This document shows positions 6,213 to 38,585 of a stretch of 42,056 nt of DNA, piece after piece. Within the stretch, counting starts at the first letter, position 1. Every line of letters begins with the position of its first letter. Position numbers and translations under genes: made by a program. Source of the stretch: Candidatus Berkelbacteria bacterium (GTDB taxonomy: Bacteria; Patescibacteriota; UBA1384; JACPKC01); contig JACQIO010000019.1 in the NCBI GenBank assembly GCA_016198415.1, positions 1 through 42,056 of the forward strand, in the 5' to 3' direction. The notes beneath the pieces were generated by a model that saw only the letters and a list, made by a program, of their open reading frames with translations, was not told the origin of the DNA and ran no database searches.

Positions 6213-6659
6213 TTAGATTCGAAATGGTGGAGACCATGGTGGTCGAACGATCACTTGAGCCAACGCAAACGCGAGCGGTGTCGTGAGCGCCAGCTCGACG
6301 AGGGGTCCGTAGGCAGATCCGCCCAACGTGGCAACGCCCGGTCGGTAGGTCCAGAGGCCAGTGTTAGTGGCCACAAGCTCACTTGCCCAACCCCAGGCCA
6401 ACCCCAGCAGGCCCACCAGCAGCAGGTCACGGCCCGTGGCCCGGGCCAGCCACGCCCAGTCGCGCTTCCAGAGAGCAAGAACGCCGTAGGCAATCCCGGC
6501 AAAGAGGGTGTCGCCGAGTGGCCCGAGGAGACAGAGTGTCCCACCCTGCCAGACCGGTGTGTAGCCCTCAAAGATTCCGAGCTGGAGATTCTCCCAGACG
6601 ACGTTTACGCCAAACTGGATCACGAGCGCGGTGACAATCAGTCGATGGAACTGCACCAT
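6213..6659 (-). CDS. Small integral membrane protein
   Basis: Hydrophobic segments; GAGGAG Shine-Dalgarno before ATG. Confidence 0.7.
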   Translation of the reverse strand: MVQFHRLIVTALVIQFGVNVVWENLQLGIFEGYTPVWQGGTLCLLGPLGDTLFAGIAYGVLALWKRDWAWLARATGRDLLLVGLLGLAWGWASELVATNTGLWTYRPGVATLGGSAYGPLVELALTTPLAFALAQVIVRPPWSPPFRI

Positions 6660-6720
6660 AGGGCCATCTCCTCTGCGGACAGGACGGGCATCGTTGCCTG
6701 ATCTTCAGGGTATCACAGAC

Positions 6721-6773
6721 AGGAATTTCGCACTTGAGAAGTGGAGGAGAACGTGAGAAAGTCCTATGAGTGA
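6721..6773 (+). promoter_or_regulatory. Inverted-repeat element with mini-ORF MEENVRKSYE-stop (6741-6773), related to the LOG-gene 5' region at 38480-38569
   Basis: AGGAATTTCGCACTT ... GTGGAGGAGAACGTGAGAAAGTCCTATGAGTGA. Confidence 0.7.
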
Positions 6774-6791
6774 AGAACAAGGATGTGCGTG

Positions 6792-7304
6792 ATGGATAAG
6801 TTCGTGCTCTGGATTGTGCTCGGGACGGTCGTGCTACTCGGCGGGCTGGTGTGGGTATCGAGTCAAGACCCCACTAAACAGCCGCCGGTTGGGCAGGAGA
6901 TCGAGATCCTCGGCCGCGAGCACATTCCGCGTGGGTCCGAGCACCCGGCCTACAACTCAAACCCGCCCACCTCGGGCTGGCACGACGCCGAGGACGCGGC
7001 CGAGAAGATCTACGACGAGCCGATCCTGGACGAGCAGGCGATCCACTCACTCGAACACGGCCGCGTCTGGGTGACGTACCGGCCAGAGAGCGTCGACGAG
7101 GCCACGCGTGGCGAGTTCGAATCCGTCATTCGACCATTCCTGAGCAAAGCCCTCCTCTCACCTCGGCCGGCCAACGACCACGCGATCGCAGCCGTCTCCT
7201 GGGGTCGAATCCAGACCTGGGAGACGTGGAACGATCAAACCAAAACTGAACTCAAGCTCTTCCTCGAGCGCAACCGCGACCGCGGACCTGAACGAGTGCC
7301 GTAA
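6792..7304 (+). CDS. DUF3105-family membrane-anchored protein
   Basis: YNSNPPTSGWH and HSLEHGRVWVTY motifs; N-terminal TM; AAGGA 8 nt before ATG at 6792. Confidence 0.85.
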   Translation: MDKFVLWIVLGTVVLLGGLVWVSSQDPTKQPPVGQEIEILGREHIPRGSEHPAYNSNPPTSGWHDAEDAAEKIYDEPILDEQAIHSLEHGRVWVTYRPESVDEATRGEFESVIRPFLSKALLSPRPANDHAIAAVSWGRIQTWETWNDQTKTELKLFLERNRDRGPERVP

Positions 7305-36813: not shown

Positions 36814-37788
36814 TCAATTGTGGAGAACCTGGGGCGGACAGCCCTGAAAGTTGAAGGCGTAGGCGGCGATGTCTCCAGATCGAACGGTCAGCGTCAGGCG
36901 GGCGCCCGGCAGGTACCGCTCCGAGCTGACTACCTGGTAGAGACGTGGCTCGGTCAGCGTCAGCTGGCCCCGGAGACCGTTCGCGACGACCTCCTCGCCC
37001 CACGGGTGATCGGTGGGCCGGAGACCGTCAATCGCTAGGTCCAACTGGCTTGTTCCCTGAACGGGTGCGGCCACCAACCCAACGGTGTGGGCCGCAAAGG
37101 TCAAGGCGAGCGTGGGGTGTGACGGGCCGGCGTGGCCGAGCACGGCGTCGGCGGTGCTGTCCCAGGTTCCTGTGAGCGCGACGCCCGGTGCCTCTGGGTG
37201 AGTCACGCGCTTACGGTGACCGCGCGCGTCTCCCAGGTGCGTGTATGGGTTGGTGGGCCAGCAGATTCGTCCGTGGCGATGCTGGTGGTAGCGCAGACTC
37301 ATCTCAGGGAGCGCCTGACGGCCGAGGCCGTAGAGGAGCTGGCGGACCGTCGTCTCGGCCTCGCTCAGCTGGTCCAGGCCGTAGGTGTCGTGACGGACGG
37401 TCCCCGCACCATCCAGGATCAGAAGGCGGGGCCAGGCTTGGGAGTTGAGGGCGCGCCAGATGGTCTGCTCGGCATCGTTGATGACGGGCAACGTGATCGA
37501 GTGTCGTGCCAGTGCCGACTGAACCACCGCCGGTTGTTCCTCAAACGCAAAGTGCGGGCGATGGACCGCGACCACGTCCAGGCGGTAGGGCCGATACTGA
37601 GCCGACCATTCTTGGAGGATTTGCAGCCCGGCCAGGCTGTGGAGATCGGTGGCGGACCAGAGGTAGACGGCGGTCGCCAGGGCCGGCCGACTGTTCCGGA
37701 TCACGGGGCCGTGGTTCGCCAGCCAAGGACCACTCGTCAGGAGCGAGGGGAGGGTTTGGATTGCATCGATGGCGGTGAGGCTGGTCAC
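36814..37788 (-). CDS. Thioredoxin-like protein with DipZ-like C-terminal domain; CXXC absent
   Basis: YRLDVVAVHRPHFAFEEQPAVVQSALARHSITLPVINDAEQTIW; LTGTWDSTADAV; RLYQVVSSERYLPGARLTLTVRSGDIAAYAFNF. Confidence 0.7.
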   Translation of the reverse strand: MTSLTAIDAIQTLPSLLTSGPWLANHGPVIRNSRPALATAVYLWSATDLHSLAGLQILQEWSAQYRPYRLDVVAVHRPHFAFEEQPAVVQSALARHSITLPVINDAEQTIWRALNSQAWPRLLILDGAGTVRHDTYGLDQLSEAETTVRQLLYGLGRQALPEMSLRYHQHRHGRICWPTNPYTHLGDARGHRKRVTHPEAPGVALTGTWDSTADAVLGHAGPSHPTLALTFAAHTVGLVAAPVQGTSQLDLAIDGLRPTDHPWGEEVVANGLRGQLTLTEPRLYQVVSSERYLPGARLTLTVRSGDIAAYAFNFQGCPPQVLHN

Positions 37789-38504
37789 TACGATCGGCTC
37801 GTTCGAGGCGGGCTGGCCTTGATGATGGAGACCACCTGCTCCAGGTCATCGGTCAGGGTCCAGAGCTTGAGATCGGCTGCGTCAATCGCCGCCCGGCCAT
37901 CTAGGAGGGTGTGCTGCAGCCAGTCCACGAGCGGCTGCCAGTACTCGGTGCCCACCAAAACCACCGGGATGTGGTCCTCAATTTTCTTGGTCTGGATGAG
38001 GGTGAGCATCTCAAACAGCTCGTCCAAGGTGCCGTAGCCGCCGGGGAAGAAGATGTAGGCCTGCGAGGCGAACGAGAGCATGACCTTCCGGACAAAGAAG
38101 TACTCAAAGCCAATCGGCTTGGTCACGTACGGATTCACCCGCTGCTCCGCGGGCAGGACGATGTTGAGGCCCACCGAGTCACCGCCTGAGGCCTTGGCGC
38201 CCTCGTTGGCCGCCTCCATGATGCCTGGTCCGCCACCGGTGATGACGGCGTACCCCTCGGCCGCCAGTTTGGCCGCCAGCTCGCGGGCCAGGACGTAGTG
38301 GGGATGATCCTGGGGGGTCCGGGCCGAGCCAAAGATACTGACGGCTTTGTCGAACTTAGACAGGAAGTCAAAGCCATCGACAAACTCGGCCATGATCCGG
38401 AAGATCCGCCAGTTGGGATCGTGCTGGTAGTCAAAGCTCTCGTGTGGTCCAGGATGCAAGCGCCATCCTCGATCTTCCCAGGACTTTCGCACTTTCTCCT
38501 CCAT
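37788..38504 (-). CDS. LOG family/TIGR00730 Rossmann-fold protein
   Basis: SIFGSARTPQDHPHY, AVITGGGPGIMEAANEGA, FFPGGYGTLDELFEMLT. Confidence 0.9.
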   Translation of the reverse strand: MEEKVRKSWEDRGWRLHPGPHESFDYQHDPNWRIFRIMAEFVDGFDFLSKFDKAVSIFGSARTPQDHPHYVLARELAAKLAAEGYAVITGGGPGIMEAANEGAKASGGDSVGLNIVLPAEQRVNPYVTKPIGFEYFFVRKVMLSFASQAYIFFPGGYGTLDELFEMLTLIQTKKIEDHIPVVLVGTEYWQPLVDWLQHTLLDGRAAIDAADLKLWTLTDDLEQVVSIIKASPPRTSRS

Positions 38505-38569
38505 CCGCCTAAGGCGGATGAACTTCGAAACAAACACTTGAGAAGTGATCCCGAAAGTGCGAAAGTCCT
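38480..38569 (-). promoter_or_regulatory. 17-bp perfect inverted repeat enclosing the LOG start codon, with internal hairpins
   Basis: AGGACTTTCGCACTTTC (38480-38496) and GAAAGTGCGAAAGTCCT (38553-38569); inside: ATCCGCCTAAGGCGGAT and CACTTGAGAAGTG. Confidence 0.85.
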
Positions 38570-38585
38570 GTTCCTATTCTACCAC

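What the first reader, a model, noticed from the sequence alone, without database searches (positions are those of the whole stretch)
6721..6773. Second copy of the LOG 5' element at a DUF3105 gene, encoding a stand-alone peptide MEENVRKSYE
AGGAATTTCGCACTT then GTGGAGGAGAACGTGAGAAAGTCCTATGAGTGA parallels the LOG leader AGGACTTTCGCACTT ... ATGGAGGAGAAAGTGCGAAAGTCCTGGGAA. Translation gives M-E-E-N-V-R-K-S-Y-E-stop versus M-E-E-K-V-R-K-S-W-E-D. The differences include synonymous CGA/AGA and GAA/GAG and a Trp/Tyr swap, so the reading frame looks preserved rather than only the DNA palindrome. Here it would be a short upstream ORF ending 18 nt before the DUF3105 start. This may be a leader peptide/attenuator family or a mobile palindromic element.
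Basis: partly seen in the sequence, partly recalled or inferred. Interest (0 to 1): 0.7.

Follow-up and report, generated by a model that had tools for sequence, protein, structure and literature searches.

The report
Decayed transposon-end palindrome, not peptide gene
The short repeated sequence in front of this gene is a worn-out copy of a tiny mobile DNA element (a MITE) bounded by the ends of an IS701-type transposon, so the "shared peptide" is what transposon ends happen to spell, and the finding is ordinary.

Summary
The sequence is as described. Window 6721-6765 carries two inverted arms that match the arms of the perfect 90-bp palindrome at 38480-38569, and a third copy lies elsewhere in the genome (contig C8:6642-6722). 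The arms are the terminal inverted repeats (TIRs) of an IS701-family insertion sequence. A complete 1.15-kb IS in Candidatus Andersenbacteria (L080) has one TIR identical over 17/17 bases (TAGGACTTTCGCACTTTC), an IS701 transposase (327 bits, cutoff 250) and a CCTA/CCTA target duplication. A second complete IS occurs in a genome of the window's own class. Copy B is flanked by a TTCC/TTCC duplication, and the syntenic LOG locus of a same-family genome lacks the element. So the three copies are MITEs (transposase-less IS701 derivatives); copy A is internally deleted and decayed. The "preserved reading frame" is not evidence of coding: the arm has no stop in any forward frame, and the same synonymous-looking changes (CGA/AGA/CGT) occur in IS TIRs outside the transposase gene. 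Copy C encodes a different tail (VKEKVRKSYSKG*). The would-be start codons are buried in an 18-bp stem in copies B and C. Ordinary, low interest.

The parts
6720..6766 (+). Copy A: decayed, internally shortened MITE (47 bp counting the terminal base on each side), upstream of DUF3105
6721..6737 (+). Copy A left TIR (AGGAATTTCGCACTTGA, 3 mismatches to AGGACTTTCGCACTTTC)
6749..6765 (+). Copy A right TIR (GAACGTGAGAAAGTCCT, 2 mismatches)
6741..6773 (+). Mechanical ORF VEENVRKSYE*; the only Shine-Dalgarno-like stretch (GGAGGAG, 6743-6749) fits the inner GTG at 6753 (MRKSYE*), not the GTG at 6741
   Evidence: sequence; not considered a gene
6792..7304 (+). DUF3105 protein; its own AAGGA motif at 6779-6783 precedes ATG 6792
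38479..38570 (-). Copy B: intact 92-bp MITE with perfect 17-bp TIRs; overlaps the 5' end of the LOG reading frame
38475..38478 (.). Copy B target-site duplication, left (TTCC)
38571..38574 (.). Copy B target-site duplication, right (TTCC)
37788..38459 (-). LOG-family gene from its likely native TTG start; MEEKVRKSWED upstream is element sequence not shared by the orthologue
   Evidence: the start codon is inferred

Best explanation
[quoted passage not shown] It is a transposase-less derivative of an IS701-family insertion sequence, with termini YAGGACTTTCGCACTTTC...GAAAGTGCGAAAGTCCTR and 4-bp target duplications. It and its two sister copies (window 38479-38570; contig C8) were moved by an IS701 transposase acting in trans and landed in short intergenic gaps upstream of genes. 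Copy A then lost most of its interior and decayed. The peptide MEE[KN]VRKS[YW] is only the translation of the TIR and the sequence next to it. Shown: TIR identity to an autonomous IS, target duplication, orthologous locus without the element, multiple copies. Inferred: mobilisation in trans, decay of copy A, absence of translation.
For: A complete IS in Ca. Andersenbacteria L080:3181-4325 has left TIR TAGGACTTTCGCACTTTC, a CCTA/CCTA duplication and a 336-aa transposase scoring 327 bits to NF049921 IS701 (cutoff 250). A complete IS in same-class genome G007:C129:1088-2140 has TIR CAGGACTTACGCATTTTC and a transposase of 315 bits. In same-class genome G017 the related TIR sits next to IS sequence at contig ends. 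More distant IS701 transposases on plasmids carry related TIRs: Nostoc TCAGGACTTACGCAACTG, Methanosarcina TTAGGACTTACGCAG, Piscirickettsia TTCACGACTTTCGCACTTTGA. Duplications: copy B TTCC/TTCC, copy C TAGT/TAGC, G034 ACTA and TATA, Saccharibacteria MITE TTTA. Family IS701 makes exactly 4-bp duplications (PMC2266710). In G001 the gene pair at LOG is syntenic (upstream gene homologous, E=2e-16) with about 18 nt between the genes and no element. Copies B and C fold at -51 and -61 kcal/mol, z=-7.4 and -7.3.
Against: No IS701 transposase was found in this genome, which is 83% complete. Copy A has no target duplication and its arms are imperfect, so its membership rests on homology to copies B and C. 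All three copies face the downstream gene in the same orientation, which could hint at function (chance 1/4).
Confidence: 0.93

Rival explanations
1. Leader-peptide/attenuator family: a translated short upstream ORF (MEENVRKSYE) controls the downstream gene.
For: The frame is open in all three copies with ATG/GTG at the same spot, GGAGGAG precedes an inner GTG, and one change is synonymous (CGA/AGA).
Against: The arm is stop-free in all three forward frames. The same Arg-codon changes occur in IS TIRs outside the transposase gene. There is no run of regulatory codons. No terminator-like site on the gene's strand was found near copy A, and its RNA folds no better than shuffles. In copies B and C the GTG is buried in an 18-bp stem. 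The downstream genes are unrelated, and the LOG orthologue in G001 lacks the element.
Confidence: 0.03
2. A domesticated 5'-UTR hairpin (protein-binding or RNase-site element) that regulates the three downstream genes and only looks like a MITE.
For: All three copies lie 16-25 nt (A, C) or directly (B) upstream of a start codon in the same orientation; B and C are very stable hairpins.
Against: Target duplications, full IS elements with the same ends, copy A no longer folding (z=+0.93), and no conservation at the orthologous LOG locus.
Confidence: 0.04

Closest known systems
IS701 family insertion sequences (NF049921 subgroup; Andersenbacteria L080 IS, G007 IS)
   Same: Same terminal inverted repeats (17/17 identical at one end of L080) and 4-bp target duplications.
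   Different: The window copies are 47 and 92 bp (83 bp on C8) and carry no transposase gene.
Prokaryotic MITEs in general (review PMC10969869; e.g. Correia elements, Nezha of cyanobacteria)
   Same: Short, non-autonomous, TIR-bounded hairpins in intergenic regions near gene starts.
   Different: Only three copies here; relation of the ends to those of Correia or Nezha elements was not tested.
Rickettsia palindromic elements (PMC10969869)
   Same: Palindromic mobile DNA that can add codons to a host gene, as copy B may do at the LOG 5' end.
   Different: No sequence relation is known or was tested; here it sits at the N-terminus and probably upstream of the native start.

Membership tests
IS701-derived MITE | Termini match those of an autonomous IS of the family | tested here: met
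   L080 IS left end identical 17/17; G007 and G017 IS related
IS701-derived MITE | 4-bp target-site duplication | tested here: met
   Copy B TTCC/TTCC; copy C 3/4; other MITEs ACTA, TATA, TTTA. Copy A itself: none
IS701-derived MITE | No transposase gene inside | tested here: met
   Elements are 47, 92 and 83 bp
IS701-derived MITE | Present in several unrelated sites and absent at an orthologous site | tested here: met
   Three sites in the genome; LOG locus without element in G001
IS701-derived MITE | Autonomous partner in the same genome | tested here: not met
   No NF049921 or G007-type transposase in G000, an 83% complete assembly. This is a usual accompaniment of a MITE, not a defining requirement for descent, since partners can be lost
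IS701-derived MITE | Actual transposition by an IS701 transposase | not testable with these tools
   -
Leader peptide / attenuator | Peptide conserved beyond DNA conservation | tested here: not met
   Different tails in A, B and C; substitutions 2 non-synonymous, 1 synonymous; arm open in all frames
Leader peptide / attenuator | Terminator/antiterminator or alternative structures | tested here: not met
   No terminator-like site on the + strand at 6500-7000; copy A folds no better than shuffles; no Rfam family in the window
Leader peptide / attenuator | Translation of the short ORF | not testable with these tools
   -

The most novel reading that the evidence does not exclude
The asymmetric end of this MITE (GGAGGAG-N3-GTG-CGA-AAG-TCC) acts as a portable ribosome-binding site plus start codon, which on insertion in front of a gene creates a short coupled upstream ORF or an N-terminal extension, and has been kept at all three sites for that reason.
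Probability: 0.06. Interest if true: 0.45.

Novelty: new member of a known kind. Interest (0 to 1): 0.15.

Why it matters
It removes a false lead (a conserved micro-peptide). It also shows that small bacterial genomes of this group carry IS701-type MITEs whose ends can mimic conserved short ORFs and gene N-termini, a trap for small-ORF annotation.

Tried and rejected
Rfam scan of the window: nothing. Two-armed exact pattern across genome contigs: no hits, because interiors and arms vary; the single arm gave the decisive L080, L071 and L077 hits. The gapped pattern over 287 phylum genomes used too short a gap range (12-42) and missed even the window copies, so it says nothing. Single AGGACTTTC hits at C1, C4, C22 and C36 looked like isolated matches without a partner arm and were dropped. 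Most other single-arm hits in genome contigs (e.g. Agathobaculum, Novosphingobium) have no partner arm and are probably unrelated. DUF3105 has no relative in 20 related genomes, so no orthologous empty site could be tested for copy A. For copy C the neighbouring gene differs in G001 and G002, so the absence there is not an empty-site test.

Full report
Observation. Arms of this type are far above chance: four matches with up to two mismatches against 0.16 expected, and two inverted arm pairs in the window against none in 150 simulated windows. The second site is not just a 5' element: 38480-38569 is a perfect palindrome, AGGACTTTCGCACTTTC...GAAAGTGCGAAAGTCCT. A third copy, 81 bp, lies on contig C8:6642-6722. 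A search of the whole 738-kb assembly with up to three mismatches found only these three arm pairs.

What the arms are. In relatives of the same class the arm sequence recurs at the ends of contigs (G007, G017), as repeated insertion sequences do. G007:C129:1088-2140 is a whole IS. Its ends are CAGGACTTACGCATTTTC and the reverse complement, and inside is a 324-aa DDE transposase that scores 315 bits to NCBIfam NF049921, IS701 family (cutoff 250). It interrupts nagB (gene named from its sequence by eye), and comparison with contig C50 suggests a GAATT duplication. The single-arm scan of genome contigs found Ca. Andersenbacteria L080:3181-4325. This is an IS with left end TAGGACTTTCGCACTTTC (the window arm, 17/17), right end GGAGTGCGAAAGTCCTA, a CCTA/CCTA target duplication and an IS701 transposase (327 bits). 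More distant IS701 transposases on Nostoc, Methanosarcina and Piscirickettsia plasmids are bounded by related ends; for the ISMesi2-type hit (L101) no such ends were found within the short flanks fetched. Published features of family IS701 are 4-bp target duplications and ends ---YACT-Y--YR (PMC2266710); the window arm fits six of those seven positions by inspection.

Insertion evidence. Counting one terminal base outside each arm, copy B is flanked by TTCC/TTCC and copy C by TAGT/TAGC. MITEs elsewhere with the same ends show ACTA, TATA (G034) and TTTA (Saccharibacteria L077). Five of nine paired elements with a testable 4-bp duplication are perfect, against about 0.04 expected (my arithmetic at 1/256 each). 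In same-family genome G001 the LOG gene and its upstream neighbour are syntenic (neighbour BLASTP E=2e-16) with about 18 nt between them and no element. The LOG orthologue there begins MQPLSIPVHEHNGFDY, and the alignment to the window protein starts only at residue 20. So MEEKVRKSWED in the LOG frame is element DNA, probably upstream of a native TTG start near 38459 (inferred).

Relation of the three copies. Aligned in the orientation of the downstream gene, B and C share not only TIRs but subterminal sequence: CTTTCGGGA[TA]CACT at the left and [AG]TG[GA]AGGAGAAAGTGCGAAAGTCCT at the right. Copy A keeps a left end, a CACTTGAGAAGTG core and the right end, with the rest missing. B and C fold into very stable hairpins (z=-7.4 and -7.3) whereas A does not (z=+0.93). 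Copy A is therefore best read as a decayed, internally deleted copy.

The peptide. The arm GAAAGTGCGAAAGTCCT has no stop in any of its three forward frames, so an open frame through it is expected. In G007 and G017 the TIR lies outside the transposase gene or just at its stop. Across copies the outward frame reads VEENVRKSYE* (A), MEEKVRKSWEDRG... into LOG (B) and VKEKVRKSYSKG* (C). Codon differences are two non-synonymous (K/N, E/K) and one synonymous, so there is no sign of purifying selection, though three copies are too few for a real dN/dS. In A the GTG at 6741 has no Shine-Dalgarno sequence; GGAGGAG fits the GTG at 6753 instead. In B and C that GTG lies in the long stem.

Verdict. This is a MITE of the IS701 family, decayed at the DUF3105 site. 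What remains open is whether the outward-facing GGAGGAG-GTG of the element affects translation of neighbouring genes. All three copies face a gene, but three is too few to exclude chance (1/4), and there is no direct evidence.

Noticed in passing
L023, L034, L039 (G034), L031 (G048), L025, L040 (G001): Several elements in relatives have the same IS701-type ends around quite different cores, including TCATTGCGAG...-type and GTCATCCTGAG...GAATGAC-type repeats, as if MITE interiors were swapped or nested.
   Followed up: partly
window 38501-38521: Copy B carries an inner perfect palindrome ATCCGCCTAAGGCGGAT; CCGCCTNNGGCGG occurs at only a few sites in the genome.
   Followed up: partly
window 38479-38570 with 37788-38504 (-): The LOG reading frame stays open through the whole MITE (EQDFRTFG...MEEKVRKSWED), so automatic annotation may give LOG a false N-terminal extension.
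   Followed up: partly
L029, L037, L042, L045 (G041): Short tandem arrays of an 8-bp unit (GAAAGTCC/TAAAGTCC) near genes in one relative; they resemble the arm but look like a different repeat.
   Followed up: no
L077:1710-2030 and L071:5820-5974: Saccharibacteria MITEs (323 and 157 bp) with the same ends; a stretch near 'TATAGCCCCCGCAAAACAAATTC' occurs as an inverted repeat inside the first.
   Followed up: no
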